A stretch of 64,000 nt of DNA. Source: Halovivax limisalsi (lineage in GTDB: Archaea > Halobacteriota > Halobacteria > Halobacteriales > Natrialbaceae). The notes beneath the pieces were generated by a model that worked only from the letters and a program-made list of their open reading frames with translations, had not been told where the DNA came from and made no database searches. This document shows positions 28,430 through 39,612 of this stretch, in pieces; position 1 is the stretch's first letter, and each line of letters starts with the position of its first letter. The DNA is taken from assembly GCF_023093535.1 (NCBI RefSeq), contig NZ_CP095757.1:3658001-3722000 (forward strand). The letters are read 5' to 3'. The position numbers and the translations under genes are program-made.

Positions 28430-30154
28430 TCAGGCCTCGTCCTGTTCGTCACCGTGCAGCGACATCCCGTCGTCGACGACCTCCATCGGTCGCATCATTT
28501 CGTGGTCTTCGTGTTCCAGGTTGTGGCAGTGGAACGGGAAGACGCCCGGATAGTCGCCGAACTCGACCGTCAGCTTGACTTCCTTTTCGGGCCGGATCAT
28601 GACGGTGTCCTTCTCGCACAGCTGGTACGGTCGGGGATCGTTGAACTCCGGTCGGCCGAGGTCACGCGACCCCTCGACCCAGAAGCGCACCAGGTGCAGG
28701 TGCAGCGGGTGCGACATCATCGTCTCGTTCTTGATGATCCAGGTCTCGGTCGTCCCGAGTTGGGGCTCGTACTGGATCGGGTCGAACGTACTGCGGTCGT
28801 TGAGCCGGTGGACCATCGTCCCGTCGTCGAGCATCTCCATCTGCATCGTGACCTCGCGCTCCTGGGCGGTGTCGTCGGGGTCCGGCCGCTCGACGGTGGG
28901 GAAGTCGATGGCCTCCGGATCGGTGGACGGGTCCGAGACCGAGCCTTCCCGGACGTGGAACTGCATCACCTCGTCCAGATCCGGCGACGGACTGGCGGTG
29001 TTGGGGTTGTGGTGTTCGCCGTGCGGGAAGGGGAAGAGGGCGTGGTTCGTGACGGTGAACGTATCGCCCGCCCAGTCGGAGAAGTCGATCGTGAACTCGG
29101 CGCGTTCGAACGGCGCGATCAGCATGGTCCCGATGTCGCCGTAGGGACCGACGCCCACGACGTTCTCGAGGTAGCCGTGCCCGGTGGAGAACCACTTCAT
29201 CGTCGGCACGTCGCCGTCATCTTGCGTCTCGTTTCGCAGCCTGAGCCCCCAGGTGCGGCCGTTCGAGGGGTTGAGCAATCGGAAGCGATAGCGGCGCGGT
29301 TCGACCTCCATGTACGGCCAGACCGCCCCGTTGACCAGCGCCTTCTCGCCGCCGTGGCTCGCGACGAACTCCTCGGGGTAGTAGATCGAACCGTCGTCGT
29401 TGAACGAGCGATCGACAAGGACGAGCGGGACGTCGTACTCGCCGCCGGGGAGCTGGCGCTCCGCGTCGTTGCGCTCGCGGATGAGATACGGCCCGATCAG
29501 TCCGGCGTGGTTGTTCAGCCGACTGATTCCGCGCGTGTGATCGTGGTAGGTCGTCGTCAGGCGCGTCTGCTGGTTCGGGAGGACCTGGACGTCCTTCGTA
29601 CGACGCGGGCCGGTCTCGCCGTCGGGCGAGATCCACATGTCCGCCTGGCCGTCGTCTTCGTCGGGCACGTTGAGTCCGTGGAAGTGAATCGAATTGCGAA
29701 CCTCCGGAACCGGCCCGTCGTGGTTGGGGTAGTTCTCCGTCGTGGTGCCGGCGATGCGTTCGTCGACGGTGAACAGGTGCTCGTTCGGCAGTGAACTGTT
29801 ATCTATTCGCACCGCGAGCTGTCGACCGCGACGCCCGGCGATGACGGGACCAGGGAACTGGCCGTCGAAGCCCCACATCGTCGTCTCCGGGAGGTCCGGG
29901 TGGACCGACGTCGAGAACTCCTCGAGCGGAACCTCGTGCAAGGGACCGCCACCGTACCAGCCGTCCGGTTCGCGTACCTCGAGTCGCGGCAGGGGCTGAA
30001 CGTACTTCTCGAGTTCCGGCCCCTCGTGATCGGTCGGCGAGGGGTCGATCGATCCGTCCTGGCCGGCGACGCCGTAGCCGGCGACCCCCGCCAGCGTCGT
30101 CGCGCCCCCGATCTCGATGAGGCGACGGCGCGAGAGCGGCGCCACTACCACCAC
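28430..30154 (-). CDS. secreted multicopper oxidase
   Basis: A 574-residue laccase/CotA-like oxidase with three cupredoxin domains. Copper ligands are visible: SIHFHG and YHDHT (type 2/3), HPLHLHLVRF and HCHNLEHEDHEMM (type 1 and 3; the last Met is the axial ligand). The N-terminus has a twin-arginine motif (LSRRRLIEIGG) and hydrophobic stretch, so it is probably exported folded by Tat. Substrates could be phenolics, Cu(I) or Mn(II). The start is uncertain: GTG 30154 is in frame, but TATAAAT near 30230 points to a transcript start near 30200, where a GTG opens a different frame; one G less in the GGGGG run near 30160 would join them. Confidence 0.88.
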   Translation of the reverse strand: MVVVAPLSRRRLIEIGGATTLAGVAGYGVAGQDGSIDPSPTDHEGPELEKYVQPLPRLEVREPDGWYGGGPLHEVPLEEFSTSVHPDLPETTMWGFDGQFPGPVIAGRRGRQLAVRIDNSSLPNEHLFTVDERIAGTTTENYPNHDGPVPEVRNSIHFHGLNVPDEDDGQADMWISPDGETGPRRTKDVQVLPNQQTRLTTTYHDHTRGISRLNNHAGLIGPYLIRERNDAERQLPGGEYDVPLVLVDRSFNDDGSIYYPEEFVASHGGEKALVNGAVWPYMEVEPRRYRFRLLNPSNGRTWGLRLRNETQDDGDVPTMKWFSTGHGYLENVVGVGPYGDIGTMLIAPFERAEFTIDFSDWAGDTFTVTNHALFPFPHGEHHNPNTASPSPDLDEVMQFHVREGSVSDPSTDPEAIDFPTVERPDPDDTAQEREVTMQMEMLDDGTMVHRLNDRSTFDPIQYEPQLGTTETWIIKNETMMSHPLHLHLVRFWVEGSRDLGRPEFNDPRPYQLCEKDTVMIRPEKEVKLTVEFGDYPGVFPFHCHNLEHEDHEMMRPMEVVDDGMSLHGDEQDEA

Positions 30155-32277: not shown

Positions 32278-33333
32278 TCAGTCGAACGACGCCGGCGTCG
32301 CCCGGTCGGCGGCCTCGATGCGCTCTCGGGCGTAGGCCTCCGCGGCGTCCAGAACGGTCATCTCCGAGCCGTCGGCGCGTTCGAGCATGGTCTCGAGCCG
32401 GTCGCCGATCGCCCGGGCCTTGGCCATCGCGTCCTCGCGCGTGCCGCCGTGGTACTCCTCCGCGACGGTGATGAGCCCGCCCGCGTTGATCACGTAGTCG
32501 GGCACGTAACGGATATCCCGATCGGCGAGCGCGTCGGCGTGGCGCCGCTCGGCGAGGATGTTGTTCGCGGCACCGGCGACGATATCACAGGCGAGGCGCG
32601 GGATCGTCTCGTCGTTCACGACGCCGCCGATCGCACACGGCGCGAAGACGTCGCAGGACTCGTCGTAGACCGCGTCTGGGTCGACGACGTCGACGTCGTA
32701 GGACTCGCGAATCGAGGCGAGGTTCTCCTGACTGATGTCGGAGACCGTCACCGACGCACCGCGTTCGACCAGCTGGCCGGTCAGGGCCGACCCGACCTTG
32801 CCGAGCCCCTGGACGACGACGGAGACGTCCTCCAGGGAGTCCGTGCCGTACTCGAATTCGACCGCGGTCTCGATCCCACGACGGACGCCGGTGGCCGTGA
32901 TCGGCGACGGATCGCCGAGACCGTCCGCCCGGCCGGCGACGTACTCCGTCTCCGTCGCGATGACCTCCATGTCGGGAACCGAGGAGTTGACGTCGACGGA
33001 GGTGATGTAACGTCCGCCCATCGCCTCGACTGCGCGGCCGTAGGCCCGCAGGAGGGCGTCGGTCTTGATCGACTCGTGGTCGCCGACGATGACGGCCTTG
33101 GCTCCGCCCAGATCGAGGTCGGCCGCCGCGGCCTTCATCGTCATCGCCTTCGACAGGCGCAGGACGTCCGACAGGGCGTCGTCCTCCGTCTCGTAGTCGA
33201 GGATTCGCGTGCCGCCCAGGCCGGGGCCCAGCGTGGTATCGTGAACCGCGATAATGGCCTGAAGCCCCGTCTCCGGATCGGCGAAGTACGAAACCTGTTC
33301 GTGCCCGCCCTCGGACACCGCGTCGAACACCAT
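32278..33333 (-). CDS. Glu/Leu/Phe/Val dehydrogenase
   Basis: A 351-residue amino acid dehydrogenase closer to leucine/valine dehydrogenases than to glutamate dehydrogenases by length and motifs: GPGLGGTRILDY, a catalytic-type Lys in LSKAMTMKAAAADLDLGGAK, and a Rossmann motif VVQGLGKVGSAL. It would deaminate leucine, valine or isoleucine to 2-oxoacids with NAD, or run in reverse. This fits catabolism of the amino acids made by the ilv-leu genes. GAATTTT lies about 27 bases upstream of ATG 33333. Substrate preference cannot be read from the sequence. Confidence 0.88.
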   Translation of the reverse strand: MVFDAVSEGGHEQVSYFADPETGLQAIIAVHDTTLGPGLGGTRILDYETEDDALSDVLRLSKAMTMKAAAADLDLGGAKAVIVGDHESIKTDALLRAYGRAVEAMGGRYITSVDVNSSVPDMEVIATETEYVAGRADGLGDPSPITATGVRRGIETAVEFEYGTDSLEDVSVVVQGLGKVGSALTGQLVERGASVTVSDISQENLASIRESYDVDVVDPDAVYDESCDVFAPCAIGGVVNDETIPRLACDIVAGAANNILAERRHADALADRDIRYVPDYVINAGGLITVAEEYHGGTREDAMAKARAIGDRLETMLERADGSEMTVLDAAEAYARERIEAADRATPASFD

Positions 33334-33488
33334 GGCAGAACCTACGGGTGCTGGCTGAAAATTCTACCTCTTCGGCCACACTGACGACCGAATTACCGCG
33401 ATTGTGGTCACCGTGCGATCGAGGGGGACACGGCCGAACCGCCTTCGGCCCACTCCGCACGCGGTTGGGTAACTGTGCCAACCCCGCC

Positions 33489-34226
33489 TCACAGGTCGGT
33501 ATCGTCGCGGTCTCGACGGGTGTTCTTCCGGACCTTGCCGATGTATTCTTTCTTCGAGAGCGACCCGTTCTTGTACGCGACGGCCCAGTCAGGGTTGGCG
33601 ATCGCCGACCCGCGTCCGTCGGCCTGGGGAAGCTCGAAGTCGATGTGGATGCGGCCGACCGCCGACTGAAACTGCCTGTCGTCCGTAATCGCCACGCTTA
33701 CCGCCTCGAGAACCGTTTCCAGGTCGTTCACGAGTTCCGGTCCCCCGGCCGCCGCCGAGGTGAACGTGATCCGACAGGCCGACCGGTCGTACGCGATCGT
33801 GAGTTGCTCGATGCCGTCCGTTCCGACGACCGATCGAACGTTCGCGTCGCGAAGGCCGGGACGCCGTCTCCGGAGCCAGATCCCGGGTCGCTCCCGCCGC
33901 CGCGATCGCCGTCCCGGCCATCGTCGACCGGGTCGTCAGTGTCCGCCCCGTCCGCACGTTCGAGTCCATCGTTCCCGTCGTCTCCGTCCGGTCCGTCGGA
34001 CCCTCCACCACTGCCCGTGCCGTCCCCGGCTCCTGCGGACGGATCGCTCGTTTGGCCATCGCTGGAGCGGCCAGTGGGGGAGTTGCCTCGGGCACCGGCG
34101 CCGGTGACCCCGTCCGCCAGGCCGGCGAGCGTTCGGTACTCGACGTCGACGTCCGGTCGGGCCACGCAGCTCGAGAGTGCGGCGAGTGCGCCTGCCCCGC
34201 CCAACTGCAGTAGCCCGGCGCTTCAT
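33489..34226 (-). pseudogene. lipoprotein gene with two frameshifts
   Basis: The DNA reads as one lipoprotein in three pieces. From ATG 34226 the frame gives MKRR; one base away LLQLGGAGALAALSSC follows, so removing one G gives a typical twin-arginine lipoprotein signal with lipobox LSSC. A Gly/Ser/Asp-rich linker (about 33870-34130) follows. A further shift near 33830-33860 is needed to enter the C-terminal domain: GIEQLTIAYDRSACRITFTS, then LVNDLETVLEAVSVAI and HIDFELPQADGRGS, ending at 33489. The C-terminal domain is unrecognised. Either a decaying gene or sequencing indels; the second shift has the opposite sign to the first. Confidence 0.6.
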
Positions 34227-34420
34227 ACCAGGCCACTAGTTGGCCAAACTATTAATTTTTTCTACTATAGTCTAACTTTATTAAATGTATGTCGGTGGCG
34301 AGTTCGGCGCCTGCGCATCGAACGGGATCCGGCGCTCGGGCCAATTCGATCGTGATACCGGACTATCGGTGCCCCGCTGGCTCGGTCGACGTGCGGTTCG
34401 ATACCGAGCGCGAGGACGAC

Positions 34421-35350
34421 TCATTCGGCGGGGTCGATCGAAACGAGGTCGTCGAGGTCGGGCACGTCGGCGGAGACGTCTTCGATCTGGGCGAGGCGCT
34501 GTTCGTGTTTCTCCAGCGCGTAGGCCGCCAGTTCCGTCGGTTTCATCCCCGCCGACTGGCCCCCGAGGCCGAACCGCTCGTCCGTGGCGATGCCCTGGAC
34601 CAGCGGGAGGAGGTCGGTGACGGTCTCCTCGATCAGCGACGCATCGACCCGACCGGATTCGACGAGGGACGAAAGCTGGTTCATCCCGAAACCGACGTGG
34701 CGGCCCTCGTCGCTCCGGATCCGCTCGAAGCCCTCGACGAGGCCTGGAAGGTGGGGCAGGGCCTCGAACTCGCCGCCGAAGGAGCGACTCATGCCGTAGT
34801 AGCCGGTTTGGGCGAGGATGCCTTCGACCGTGAGGTGGTAGTGACTGTACGCGATCGCACGGGTTTCGGGCGAATCGTCCTCCAACAACCGCTGCGTGGC
34901 TCGTTTGTTGCGATCGAACAGTTCCAGGAACGAGTCGTCGAACCACTTCTCGTCACGCGGACTCGTGCGATCCCAGCCGAGGTGGTCCTCGACGCCCCAG
35001 ACCACCGTGCGCCAGTACCGATCGAAGAAATCCGCGTGCTTTGCCTCCTCGTAGAGCTGAGTGGTGAGAAACAGCTGGTCGTCGATATCCTCGAGGACGA
35101 CGGCGAACGGCGCCAGATCCTCGGTTACGGCGTCCTCGCCCGCACCGAACTTCGCGATTCCCGTCACGATGGCGTCGAGGTGGCGCCGGTCGAATTCGTC
35201 CGTCGCCTCCGCGTGGGCGAGCAGATTTTCCAGATCCGTCTCGAGATCGATCGCGGCCGGATCCCAGTGGCGCTCGACCGCATTCCGGTAGTACCGGTTC
35301 GACCGCGAGGCTCGGTCCATCACGGCCGTCGGCGTGTACGTCCGCTCCAT
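34421..35350 (-). CDS. R2-like ferritin-fold protein (NrdF/R2lox-like)
   Basis: A 309-residue protein with the four-helix di-metal carboxylate pattern: VVLEDIDDQLF, then TTQLYEEAKHADFF (E-x2-H), HLTVEGILAQTGY, and RIRSDEGRHVGFGMNQL (D/E-x2-H). These match the beta subunit of class I ribonucleotide reductase and the R2-like ligand-binding oxidases. No nrdA-like gene is adjacent, so either a stand-alone ligand-binding oxidase or an R2 with a distant partner. CTTAATT lies about 27 bases upstream of ATG 35350, favouring that start over longer frames. Confidence 0.85.
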   Translation of the reverse strand: MERTYTPTAVMDRASRSNRYYRNAVERHWDPAAIDLETDLENLLAHAEATDEFDRRHLDAIVTGIAKFGAGEDAVTEDLAPFAVVLEDIDDQLFLTTQLYEEAKHADFFDRYWRTVVWGVEDHLGWDRTSPRDEKWFDDSFLELFDRNKRATQRLLEDDSPETRAIAYSHYHLTVEGILAQTGYYGMSRSFGGEFEALPHLPGLVEGFERIRSDEGRHVGFGMNQLSSLVESGRVDASLIEETVTDLLPLVQGIATDERFGLGGQSAGMKPTELAAYALEKHEQRLAQIEDVSADVPDLDDLVSIDPAE

Positions 35351-35707
35351 GCTTCGATTTCGGTCGGCGGTGCAATTAAGGGTGACGAGAACTGCCGGTG
35401 AGGACCGCCGGCCCTCGTCACTCGCCGCCGATCCGGCGGCAACTCGGGCGTCGAACCGAACGACGAACCATCGGCGTCGCCGGCAGCTCCGTCGCCGATA
35501 CCGACCCCGTCGATAGCCGCATCGACGGCCTCGATACGGCCCCGAAGCCGCCGGTTCTGAGTCCACCGCGACCATCTCCTCGCGCAGTGACCGCCTCCAA
35601 CGAGTATCACGGCGACCGCGCCGGTGGCACGCACGGCTTCCCTCCGTCGCGACGGAACCGAGCGGTGCAAGCGTTTATAGTGTTAGATGTTGAAATGTTT
35701 TCCAGTG
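35351..35707. promoter_or_regulatory. divergent promoter region of R2-like and repeat-protein genes
   Basis: TATA-like boxes lie at 35373-35379 (minus strand, CTTAATT) and 35674-35680 (plus strand, TTTATAG, about 30 bases before ATG 35708). Between them is GC-rich DNA without a supportable gene. Confidence 0.5.
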
Positions 35708-37348
35708 ATGTTACCGACCGATGCGGCCGATGACAAAGGGACGGGTGTTTCGCGTCGACGCGTCCTCGAAAGCGCCGGCGTCGCGGGCGTGGGAGCGACG
35801 GGGATCGCGGGCGCGACAGCCCGCACGAGCGCACCCTGCGAACCGCGGTGGGAGACCGAAACGTGCGTCGTCACCGTCGAGGAGGCGCCGTTACTCGAGG
35901 CCTGCGGGGACGACGACCCCGCAACCGTTCCCGCGGGGACGGAGGCCATAGTGCTGGATTACACCTGTTGTGCCGAAACGGACGAGTACTACTACGTCGA
36001 GTGGTGCGAGTCGGACTACCCCGAGGGATGGGTCGCCGAGGCGGTGCTGGAACGGGCACCGTCCTGCTGTGGCACCTGTTCGTTCCGCTGGGAAGTCGAA
36101 ACCTGCGTCACGACGACCGGTGCCGAGGTCCCGGTGTACGAGGAGGAGTGCGCTCAAGAGCCCGGTGCAATCACGCCCAGCGGGGCGAAGGGGGTCATCC
36201 ACGAGCGGGTCTGTTGTGAAGACGAGGAGGGTAACCGGGTCCCGCGGTACGGGATCGAGTGGTGCCACGCCGACCTTCCCGACGGGTGGGTAACCCAGAC
36301 GGACCTCACCGCCTCCGACGGCTGTTGTGACTCCTGCGAGCCGCGGTGGGGGCCCGACACCTGCGTCGAGACGGCTGTCGACGGCGTGCCGATCTTCGAC
36401 GAGGAGTGTTCCGGCGACCCGATTGAACTGCTCCCGCAGGGAATGCAGGCGACCGTCCTCGAAGGCGGGTGCTGCGAGGGTCCGACCGGACCGACGCCGG
36501 GCTACTACGTCGACTGGTGTGACTCCGACCTCGAAATCGCGTGGATCCGGCAGGCGGACCTGGTGGAGTCGAGCGGTTGCTGTGGCACGTGCGAACCGCA
36601 GTGGGGGCCCGAGACGTGCGTGGAAACGGCCGGCGACGAGGTCCCAATCTTCGACGAGGAGTGTTCCGGAGACCCGTTCGAATACCTTCCTCAGGGGGTA
36701 CAAGCCACCATCCTCGAGAGCGGCTGCTGCGAGGGCGCGGACGGACCGACGCCCGGCTACTACGTCGACTGGTGTGACCCCGATCTCCCGGTCGCGTGGA
36801 TCCGGGAGGCGGACCTCGTCGAATCGAGCGGTTGCTGCGAGCAGTGTACATTCGAGTGGGACGTCGACGACTGCATCCGGGTTCGGTTCGACGAACCGCC
36901 GATTTTCGACGCGGCGTGTGCGAACGAGCCGATGTCCGTCGAGGCGCGAGCCGTCGTCACCGACCGACGCTGCTGTGAGATCGACGGCGAACTGCGGCCG
37001 CGCTACGCCCTGGAGTGGTGTGACGCGACGCTCCCCGACGGGTGGGTCGACGAGGCGGCCGTGGTCGGCTCGGCCCGCTGCTGTGACTGCGACCTGCAGT
37101 TAGAACCTGGTCAGTGCGTCATCACGTACGACTACAGTGTCGCCCTCTACGACGAGCCGTGCGCGGGGGAGTACGAAGTACTGATTCCGGAGCGGACGAA
37201 GGGAGTCGTCCGCGAGGGCGCCTGCTGTGAGTTCAACGGCGATCCCTGGTCGGGCTACTACGTCGAGTGGTGCGATCCGGACCTCCGGGACGGCTGGGTC
37301 GCCGACTACGCGGTATCCGCGTCGGACGGCTGCTGTGACGAGCAATAG
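35708..37348 (+). CDS. secreted protein with six 8-Cys repeats
   Basis: A 546-residue exported protein. A twin-arginine signal (SRRRVLESAGVAGVGATG) precedes six tandem units of about 76-88 residues starting near 35836, 36065, 36321, 36577, 36832 and 37076. Each unit has a W-containing start, a TCV strand, an EEC, a CC pair, Y-x-(V/I)-(E/D)-WC, an acidic DLPDGW-like turn and a closing GCC. A complete unit has eight cysteines, about 48 in all, probably in disulfides outside the cell. Units 3 and 4 are nearly identical, so recent duplication. The GWV/AWI turn near the unit end recalls bacterial SH3 domains. Function is unknown; surface binding is possible. ATG 35708 is chosen by TTTATAG about 30 bases upstream. 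Confidence 0.85.
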   Translation: MLPTDAADDKGTGVSRRRVLESAGVAGVGATGIAGATARTSAPCEPRWETETCVVTVEEAPLLEACGDDDPATVPAGTEAIVLDYTCCAETDEYYYVEWCESDYPEGWVAEAVLERAPSCCGTCSFRWEVETCVTTTGAEVPVYEEECAQEPGAITPSGAKGVIHERVCCEDEEGNRVPRYGIEWCHADLPDGWVTQTDLTASDGCCDSCEPRWGPDTCVETAVDGVPIFDEECSGDPIELLPQGMQATVLEGGCCEGPTGPTPGYYVDWCDSDLEIAWIRQADLVESSGCCGTCEPQWGPETCVETAGDEVPIFDEECSGDPFEYLPQGVQATILESGCCEGADGPTPGYYVDWCDPDLPVAWIREADLVESSGCCEQCTFEWDVDDCIRVRFDEPPIFDAACANEPMSVEARAVVTDRRCCEIDGELRPRYALEWCDATLPDGWVDEAAVVGSARCCDCDLQLEPGQCVITYDYSVALYDEPCAGEYEVLIPERTKGVVREGACCEFNGDPWSGYYVEWCDPDLRDGWVADYAVSASDGCCDEQ

Positions 37349-37398: not shown

Positions 37399-39612
37399 TC
37401 AGTCCGCCGCGATCTCGACGTTGGCCTCGTCGGCCTTCCCGAGCGCCTCGACGAGCAGTTCGGCGACGTCGACGATCTCGATGTCGTCCTCGAAGCCGCC
37501 GGTCTTGCGGCCGTCCTCGTACATCGTCATGCACATCGGGCAGGCGACGACGAACTTCTCGACGGCCGCGCCGGCCTCGGTATCCTCCAGGGCCTCTCGC
37601 AGGCGCTCTTCGCTCGGTTTGGGCTCTTCCTCGAAGTCCATCCAGAGGCCGCCGCCACCGCCGCCGCAGCAGAACGAATCCGCGCGGTTGCGCGGCATCT
37701 CGTGGAGGTCGGCGCCCGTCGCCCGGATGAGTTCCCGCGGGGCCTCGTACTCGTCGTTGTACCGGCCGAGGTGACACGGATCGTGGTAGGTGACCGTGTA
37801 GTCGAGTTCGGTCCCCGTGAGGTCGAGTTTCCCCTCGGTGACGAGTTCCTCGATGGCCTGCGTCCAGTGGAGGACGTCGATCTCGCCGTCGGCGTTCCAC
37901 GAGTCGGTGTACTCGAACGGCATCATCGGGTCGTCCGCGAACTCCTCGAAGTCGAGCTCCGGATACTCGTTTTCGAACGTGTTGTAGGAGTGTGGGTCCG
38001 TACAGACGATGGTGTCGAAGTCACAGTCGTCCCACGTTTCGACGTGGTGGCCGGCGAGTTCGACGTAGAGGAACTCCTCGCCGACGCGGCGGATGTCGTT
38101 GCCGTCGTACTTCTCGTCCTCGAAGAGGATGCCGAAGCTGACGTCGGCCTCCTGTAAGATCGTCGCGAGCGAGCGAGCGACCCGCTTGTTGCGGTCGTCG
38201 TAGCTCGGGTAGTCGCCGACGTACCAGAGGTAGTCGACTTCCTCCTCGCGGGCGTCAGTGAGGTCGAACTCGAGCTCGTCGGCCCAGTCCGCCCGATCCC
38301 GGGGGCTGTTCCCGAACGTGTTGCCGTCCTGCATCACGTTCTGGAAGACGTCCTGCATAGACGAGCGGACGTCGCCCTGGTCGGTCAGCTGGCGGTTGAG
38401 CTTCGTGAAGCTCTTCAGGTGCTCGATCTCGACGGGACAGGCGTCCATGCAGGCCATGCATGCCATGCAAGACTCCATCGTCTCGCTATCGATGACCGAT
38501 GCGCCCCCGTCGGCGATGATCGGTTTCTCCTCGGTCTCGCCGGCGTCGAGTTCCTCGCGGTACTGTTTCAGGTCCAAGATTACGTTCCGCGGGTCGAGCG
38601 GGCGATCGGAGGCTTTCGCCGGGCAGGCGGCCGAACAGCGGCCGCACTTGGTGCAGGCGTCCTGGTCGAGCATCTCCTTCCAGGTGAAGTCCTCGATGGA
38701 TTCGGCGTTCGTCGCGTCCAGATCCGACGGGACGTTGGGGAGGCGCCGGCCCGCCTTCTCGTCGCGCGTGACGACGTTCGCGAACGACGAGAACATGTGG
38801 AACGGCTTGGCGTAGGGGATCCACGCGATGAAGAAGAAGGCGTTCAGCGAGTGGAGCCACCAGATCGCCCAGTGGACGTTCTCGACGTTGAACCCGGCCG
38901 TATTGAAGCCGGCCGCCTCCGGACCGAGCGTCGACAGGCCCATCGCGTCGAACCCGAGCGCGAGCGCGTAGCCGACGAAGCTGACCCGCTCGAAGTCGGG
39001 AATGCCCATCGAGTAGATGCGAAGGCCTTCGAGCAGGAAGCCGCCCGCGCCGAGGAAGAACAGCGTCCAGACGAAGACGTCGTCCTCCAGAGAGGTGTGG
39101 CGGTCGAGTAACCGGTGATTGCCGACCCAGTATCGCCGGTAGATCGCCATCCCGAGCCCGACGACGAACAGCAGCCCCATGGCGTCGACGATGAACTGGT
39201 AGGAGAGGTAGAAGTCGCCGATCCAGAACGATGGTTGCTGGAAGATCTTCTGGACGGCGTACTCGTCGACCATGATGATCACCGTCGCGATGAACAGGGT
39301 CAGAAAGCCCCACATGATGAACGCGTGCATCAGGCCGCCGTAGAGGTCGCGGTTGAACTGCTTCTCGTTCGAGAGGACGATCTTCGTCGCCCCGACGACG
39401 CGTTCGTGGATCTCGTCGACGCGCGGGAACGGATCGTCGCTGGCTCGCGCGTACCGGGCGAACCGGCTCACGAACCCATAGAGAAAGACGAGAATCGCGA
39501 TCGTCGCGAACAGGTAGAAGATCGCGTATTCGGTGTCGGTGATACCCCAGTACGTCTCGCGAGTCGCCTCGCTCGTCGCGAGGGTAACGGCACCGTCGAC
39601 GCCTCCAGACAT
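37399..39612 (-). CDS. HdrD-like Fe-S oxidoreductase with membrane anchor
   Basis: A 737-residue fusion. The N-terminal third has about six membrane helices like the gamma subunit of nitrate reductase or HdrE (YAIFYLFATIAILVFLYGFV; WWLHSLNAFFFIAWIPY). Then come two 4Fe-4S motifs (CTKCGRCSAACP and CMACMACMDACP) and two CCG-type domains (the first partly degenerate; the second with HDPCHLGRYN, SFCCGGGGGGLW and CPMCMTMYED). It should pass electrons between quinone and a soluble donor or acceptor; haloarchaea lack the methanogen heterodisulfide, so the partner may be another thiol or a flavoprotein such as ETF. AGTTAAGG lies about 27 bases before ATG 39612. Confidence 0.9.
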   Translation of the reverse strand: MSGGVDGAVTLATSEATRETYWGITDTEYAIFYLFATIAILVFLYGFVSRFARYARASDDPFPRVDEIHERVVGATKIVLSNEKQFNRDLYGGLMHAFIMWGFLTLFIATVIIMVDEYAVQKIFQQPSFWIGDFYLSYQFIVDAMGLLFVVGLGMAIYRRYWVGNHRLLDRHTSLEDDVFVWTLFFLGAGGFLLEGLRIYSMGIPDFERVSFVGYALALGFDAMGLSTLGPEAAGFNTAGFNVENVHWAIWWLHSLNAFFFIAWIPYAKPFHMFSSFANVVTRDEKAGRRLPNVPSDLDATNAESIEDFTWKEMLDQDACTKCGRCSAACPAKASDRPLDPRNVILDLKQYREELDAGETEEKPIIADGGASVIDSETMESCMACMACMDACPVEIEHLKSFTKLNRQLTDQGDVRSSMQDVFQNVMQDGNTFGNSPRDRADWADELEFDLTDAREEEVDYLWYVGDYPSYDDRNKRVARSLATILQEADVSFGILFEDEKYDGNDIRRVGEEFLYVELAGHHVETWDDCDFDTIVCTDPHSYNTFENEYPELDFEEFADDPMMPFEYTDSWNADGEIDVLHWTQAIEELVTEGKLDLTGTELDYTVTYHDPCHLGRYNDEYEAPRELIRATGADLHEMPRNRADSFCCGGGGGGLWMDFEEEPKPSEERLREALEDTEAGAAVEKFVVACPMCMTMYEDGRKTGGFEDDIEIVDVAELLVEALGKADEANVEIAAD

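What the first reader, a model, noticed from the sequence alone, without database searches (positions are those of the whole stretch)
35708..37348. Exported protein with about 48 cysteines in six SH3-like repeats
Each unit of 76-88 residues has eight cysteines in fixed order, including two CC pairs, plus a conserved W-C and a DLPDGW-like turn. Haloarchaeal secreted proteins are usually poor in cysteine, so such a disulfide-rich tandem array stands out. Units 3 and 4 are almost identical while others diverge, showing ongoing unit duplication. The gene is divergent from an R2-like di-metal protein, which might or might not be related.
Basis: partly seen in the sequence, partly recalled or inferred. 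Interest (0 to 1): 0.7.

Follow-up and report, generated by a model that had tools for sequence, protein, structure and literature searches.

The report
Secreted array of disulfide-stapled SH3-like domains
A salt-loving archaeon (genus Halovivax) makes an exported protein of six small beta-barrel domains, each with eight cysteines in fixed places; the building block also occurs singly in related archaea, but the cysteine-packed array was found only in this genus and is probably a tough, multi-handed binding protein that works outside the cell.

Summary
The ORF at 35708-37348 (+) encodes a Tat-type signal followed by six units of 80-86 residues, each with eight cysteines in the same order: 48 Cys, 8.9% of the ORF against 0.8% in the rest of the window. 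AlphaFold2 predicts one unit as an SH3-like barrel with high confidence (pLDDT 93.8); two units fold as separate beads without fixed mutual orientation (pTM 0.55). There is no Pfam or PDB sequence match and no NCBIfam match above cut-off. The array was found in three of five sampled Halovivax species, always between the same neighbours; one copy has five units, one is frameshifted, and a fourth species keeps the flanks but lacks the gene. Units 3 and 4 are alike in all three carriers, so that duplication is old, not ongoing. Single-domain, Tat-type relatives in other Natrialbaceae carry only four or two of the eight cysteines, which suggests how the array grew and which cysteines pair. The R2-like neighbour is widespread without the array, so the link is only positional. 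Best reading: a secreted, multivalent, disulfide-stapled binding protein, analogous to bacterial SH3b targeting arrays; the ligand is unknown.

The parts
35674..35684 (+). probable archaeal TATA box (TTTATAGTGTT), about 30 nt before the start codon
   Evidence: identical in the H. asiaticus and G001 upstream regions while the flanks diverge
35708..37348 (+). gene for the exported six-unit cysteine-rich protein (546 aa)
   Evidence: open frame with homologues in two other species, dN/dS about 0.2
35708..35836 (+). Tat-type signal region (SRRRVLESAG...ATARTSAP); no lipobox by published haloarchaeal rules
   Evidence: sequence; weak TAT-model match TIGR02811 E 0.046; RR-to-Cys distance and preceding Arg outside the TatLipo rule
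35837..36076 (+). unit 1, 80 aa, 8 Cys
36077..36334 (+). unit 2, 86 aa, 8 Cys; the unit modelled
36335..36589 (+). unit 3, 85 aa, 8 Cys, 80% identical to unit 4
36590..36844 (+). unit 4, 85 aa, 8 Cys
36845..37087 (+). unit 5, 81 aa, 8 Cys
37088..37345 (+). unit 6, 86 aa, 8 Cys; missing in H. asiaticus
34421..35575 (-). neighbour, not part of the system: R2-like ligand-binding oxidase homologue (the conserved start is nearer 35360)
   Evidence: NCBIfam PRK08326 E 1e-38, below the curated cut-off; widespread without the array

Best explanation
The gene makes a Tat-exported protein, not lipid-anchored and with no obvious membrane anchor, made of six SH3-like beta-barrels strung like beads. Each barrel is stapled by up to four disulfides. 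It most likely acts as a multivalent binding or coating protein outside the cell: each barrel offers a weak site for a peptide or glycan of an extracellular polymer (own S-layer or envelope glycans, or a neighbour's cell wall), and the tandem array gives avidity. The cysteines keep the fold intact when salt drops or proteases are present. Shown: open gene under purifying selection, unit register, predicted fold, flexible linkage, family distribution. Inferred: export, disulfides, binding function and ligand.
For: Unit model pLDDT 93.8, pTM 0.83, strand order of an SH3 barrel. The structural second look is dominated by SH3-like barrels; many of the top rows are SH3b or targeting domains of NlpC/P60 enzymes, autolysins, LytB and endolysins (Z about 8, rmsd 2-3.5 A over 59-70 residues). 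Two-unit model: mean pLDDT 90.7, linker about 75, pTM only 0.55, i.e. independent beads. All eight Cys are invariant across units and species apart from the C1 lost to the frameshift in G001. Single-domain, Tat-type relatives carry 4 Cys (C2, C3, one of C4/C5, and a C-terminal Cys = C7/C8; L009-L011) or 2 Cys (C3 and C4/C5; L030): even numbers, nested, as expected for pairwise disulfides (profile-profile E 2e-6). Precedents: the C. perfringens autolysin has ten SH3b domains thought to bind wall peptide at many sites (PMC8470621); the haloarchaeal secreted halolysin SptA has a demonstrated disulfide that protects it from proteolysis in hypotonic conditions (PMC3158780).
Against: No direct evidence of secretion, disulfides or binding. 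Foldseek E-values are weak (best 0.02) and Z about 8 is middling, so membership in SH3b proper is not shown. Haloarchaea lack peptidoglycan (general knowledge), so the usual SH3b ligand is absent from the cell itself. No VKOR (disulfide oxidase) family hit in the three carriers of the gene; other oxidases were not looked for.
Confidence: 0.5

Rival explanations
1. The cysteines bind metal (a secreted metallothionein-like or thiolate-cluster array) and Tat exports the protein because it folds with metal in the cytoplasm.
For: Eight Cys per unit, two CC pairs, and a CC-x(1-2)-C run across each unit border; the carriers lack VKOR.
Against: Inside units the Cys are spread along a predicted beta-barrel, about 8-20 residues apart except for the CC pairs, not in CxC/CxxC clusters; relatives keep the domain with only 4 or 2 Cys; only two His in the protein.
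Confidence: 0.12
2. It is an antagonistic protein: either a halocin-like toxin against other haloarchaea or the wall-targeting part of an antibacterial weapon.
For: Patchy presence and loss in close relatives; SH3b-like fold resembles wall-targeting domains; archaea are known to secrete peptidoglycan hydrolases that kill bacteria (PMC12352652).
Against: No catalytic domain in the protein, no hydrolase recognised among the neighbours scanned; no halocin or toxin family match.
Confidence: 0.12
3. Multi-headed inhibitor of secreted proteases, like other disulfide-rich tandem proteins.
For: Tandem, cysteine-rich, exported, with small independent units.
Against: No inhibitor family match; SH3 barrels are not a usual inhibitor scaffold (general knowledge).
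Confidence: 0.08
4. It works together with the neighbouring R2-like oxidase or the heterodisulfide-reductase-like protein (redox pair).
For: Adjacent in three species.
Against: R2-like gene in 89 of 125 family genomes, array in 3; G003 keeps both neighbours without the array; the single-domain relatives lie in a different neighbourhood (by reading).
Confidence: 0.05

Closest known systems
Bacterial SH3 (SH3b) cell-wall-targeting arrays, e.g. the ten SH3b domains of Clostridium perfringens autolysin Acp (PMC8470621)
   Same: tandem SH3-like barrels on an exported protein with flexible linkers; related predicted fold
   Different: no catalytic domain, no Pfam SH3 match, eight Cys per unit, strongly acidic (net -91), in an archaeon without peptidoglycan
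Single-domain Tat-type proteins of other Natrialbaceae (L009-L011 in genus g9; L030 in genus g20)
   Same: homologous domain, Tat-type signal, shared subset of Cys positions
   Different: one unit, 4 or 2 Cys, no array; different gene neighbourhood
Disulfide-stabilised haloarchaeal secreted proteins such as halolysin SptA (PMC3158780)
   Same: secreted, and a disulfide protects against proteolysis in low salt
   Different: one demonstrated disulfide in a protease, against about 24 possible here; unrelated protein
Metallothioneins and other Cys-cluster proteins
   Same: high Cys content
   Different: exported, predicted folded barrel, Cys not clustered

Membership tests
SH3-like barrel fold | barrel with RT loop, distal hairpin and a 3-10 turn before the last strand | tested here: met
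   confident AF2 model, strands 10-13, 17-21, 31-34, 38-48, 54-62, 70-73, helical turn 74-76, strand 77-79; structural neighbours are mostly SH3-like barrels. A prediction, not a solved structure.
Bacterial SH3 (SH3b) families in Pfam/NCBIfam | significant match to a curated family model | tested here: not met
   no Pfam family even at E 10 for units or single-domain relatives; no Pfam match at E 1 and no NCBIfam match above cut-off for the whole protein
Bacterial SH3 (SH3b) targeting modules | closest structural neighbours are SH3b targeting domains | tested here: inconclusive
   best Z 8.2-8.0 to SH3b-bearing NlpC/P60 enzymes, autolysin, LytB, endolysin, but tied with chromo-barrel, Tudor and KOW-like domains
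Bacterial SH3 (SH3b) targeting modules | attached to a wall hydrolase catalytic domain | tested here: not met
   the ORF holds only signal and six units
Bacterial SH3 (SH3b) targeting modules | binds peptidoglycan or its cross-bridge peptides | not testable with these tools
   needs a binding assay
Haloarchaeal Tat substrates | twin-arginine signal | tested here: met
   twin Arg + hydrophobic stretch in all three species by reading; formal TatFind not run
Haloarchaeal Tat lipoproteins | lipobox Cys 12-21 residues after the RR, no charged residue before it | tested here: not met
   first Cys is about 26 residues after the twin Arg, preceded by Arg and Pro (rule from PMC2945643)
Metallothionein-like metal binders | clustered CxC/CxxC thiolates and metal content | tested here: inconclusive
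   spacing does not fit clusters within units; metal content not testable

The most novel reading that the evidence does not exclude
A cysteine-stapled SH3b-like array is an archaeal, catalysis-free, multivalent wall- or envelope-binding weapon or adhesin, showing that archaea built a large disulfide-rich extracellular scaffold from one tiny barrel inside one genus.
Probability: 0.15. Interest if true: 0.65.

Novelty: new variant of a known kind. Interest (0 to 1): 0.42.

Why it matters
Haloarchaeal proteins hold very few cysteines. A secreted protein with nearly 9% Cys, with single-domain relatives holding 4 and 2, is a readable series for how disulfide-rich extracellular arrays arise. It also raises a testable question about how these archaea oxidise so many cysteines in a Tat-exported protein.

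Tried and rejected
Pfam, NCBIfam and PDB sequence searches gave nothing meaningful. Viral contigs, plasmids and phages: no relatives. Weak class- or order-wide profile hits, many with stop codons inside the frame (L036-L048; L068-L069), were taken as chance and not read one by one. The G018 hit shares only the Tat signal region with an unrelated larger protein. Functional link to the R2-like gene rejected on distribution. 'Ongoing duplication' rejected. Structural families absent from the second-look list are not excluded by it. Literature searches found no report on this protein or on Cys-rich SH3 arrays in archaea.

Full report
OBSERVATION. The ORF 35708-37348 (+) gives 546 residues with a twin-arginine signal (SRRRVLESAGVAGVGATGIAGATA) and 48 cysteines, all after the signal. 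They fall into six units (protein 44-123, 124-209, 210-294, 295-379, 380-460, 461-546) of 80-86 residues with eight Cys each: C1-x8-C2 ... C3 ... C4C5 ... YYVEW-C6 ... DLPDGWV ... C7C8. Under within-unit shuffling, 19,999 of 20,000 trials gave no column with Cys in all six units; eight are seen. Cys is 8.86% of the ORF against 0.81% in the other likely ORFs of the window. Mature net charge is about -91. The frame is under purifying selection (dN/dS about 0.17-0.24). A TTTATAGTGTT box about 30 nt before ATG 35708 is identical in all three species that have the gene, which supports that start and suggests the gene is transcribed.

DISTRIBUTION. In 149 relatives the array is found only in two other genomes of the genus (a third hit, G018, is the signal region only). 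A scan of 84,980 species genomes with the unit alignment confirmed only H. asiaticus (the scan is motif-based and may omit close records). H. asiaticus has five units, lacking unit 6. G001 has six units but a one-base deletion between units 2 and 3, either recent or a sequencing error, since the part after it still shows low dN/dS. G003 (3.22 Mb, one contig) keeps both flanking genes but has a small gene plus a PIN-domain gene, probably a toxin-antitoxin pair, in place of the array. Traces of that stretch remain beside the array in G001 and next to the R2-like gene in H. asiaticus, so G003 probably lost the array by deletion. G002, the fifth genome, lacks it. The gene is thus accessory in this genus.

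UNIT HISTORY. Orthologous units cluster together: u1 66-94%, u2 62-87%, u5 60-85%, u6 76%. u3 against u4 is 80% in the window genome, 74% in G004 and 72% in G001, about as alike as orthologous u3 or u4 pairs between species (76-88%). The u3/u4 duplication therefore happened before or near the split of these species (or the copies were homogenised); it is not evidence of present-day duplication. Unit number does vary.

FOLD. With 11 units from two species as the alignment, AlphaFold2 predicts unit 2 at pLDDT 93.8 and pTM 0.83 with the strand order of an SH3-like barrel. Foldseek finds no strong match (best E 0.02), but the structural second look is filled by SH3-like barrels. Top rows include NlpC/P60-type enzymes whose matched part is their N-terminal SH3b region (2evr, 3npf, 2hbw), staphylococcal autolysin repeats (4epc), pneumococcal LytB (4q2w) and a phage endolysin (4krt), tied with chromo-barrel, Tudor and KOW-like domains (Z about 7-8). 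This supports the fold class but not membership in SH3b, for which Pfam matches are absent. A two-unit model keeps both barrels confident (mean pLDDT 90.7) but has a weaker linker (about 75) and pTM 0.55: beads on a string.

SINGLE-DOMAIN RELATIVES. The unit profile found short Tat-type ORFs in three genomes of another genus of the family (E 1e-4 to 1e-3), and these led to a fourth in a further genus. Profile-profile comparison links them to the units (E 2e-6, probability 89%, 63 columns). The first three have four Cys (C2, C3, one of C4/C5, and a C-terminal Cys corresponding to C7/C8); the fourth has two (C3 and C4/C5), lacking C2 and the C-terminal Cys together. In the SH3 strand order the start of strand 1 (C2) lies next to the end of the last strand (C7/C8). 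I infer that C3 pairs with C4/C5 and C2 with C7/C8, and that the array added C1, C6 and the second member of each CC pair.

MECHANISM. The protein has no recognisable catalytic domain, no lipobox by the TatLipo rule (PMC2945643) and no C-terminal hydrophobic stretch. The best-supported reading is a freely secreted, multivalent binding protein. Tandem SH3b domains in bacteria serve this purpose on walls (PMC8470621), and a disulfide protects a haloarchaeal secreted protease in low salt (PMC3158780). The ligand is open: own envelope or matrix polymers seem likelier than bacterial walls, though archaea do attack bacterial walls (PMC12352652). No VKOR family member was found in the three carriers, so how the disulfides would be made is open.

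NEIGHBOURS. The divergent gene is an R2-like oxidase homologue (NCBIfam PRK08326, E 1e-38, below cut-off), present in 89 of 125 family genomes, whereas the array is in three. The convergent gene is a CCG/Fe-S heterodisulfide-reductase-like protein, kept in G003 without the array. Neither is tied to the array by distribution.

VERDICT. Real, unusual and, as far as searched, genus-restricted; a new cysteine-stapled variant of a known domain class. Function is inferred from fold and architecture only.

Noticed in passing
L061:6330-7036 (G003): Small gene plus PIN-domain gene, probable VapBC-like toxin-antitoxin pair, sits where the array gene is in the other species; remnants survive beside the array in G001 (L062) and near the R2-like gene in H. 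asiaticus (L026).
   Followed up: partly
L003/L005 (G001:C1 about 1769900): One-base deletion between units 2 and 3 splits the array gene in G001; the downstream frame still shows low dN/dS, so recent or a sequencing error.
   Followed up: partly
window 34421-35575 (-): R2-like ligand-binding oxidase homologue, common in the family (89 of 125 genomes, often two copies), scoring below NCBIfam cut-offs; perhaps its own archaeal subgroup.
   Followed up: partly
window 32278-33333 (-): Glu/Leu-type dehydrogenase most like tryptophan dehydrogenase ScyB (364 bits, cut-off 600), in an archaeon.
   Followed up: no
window 33370-34430: About 1 kb between the ScyB-like gene and the R2-like gene without a counterpart in the other species (about 120 bases there in G003 and H. 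asiaticus).
   Followed up: no
window 37399-39612 (-): Heterodisulfide-reductase-like Fe-S protein, 89-91% DNA identity across the genus, higher than its neighbours.
   Followed up: no
window 28430-30154 (-): Multicopper oxidase most like o-aminophenol oxidase PhsA.
   Followed up: no
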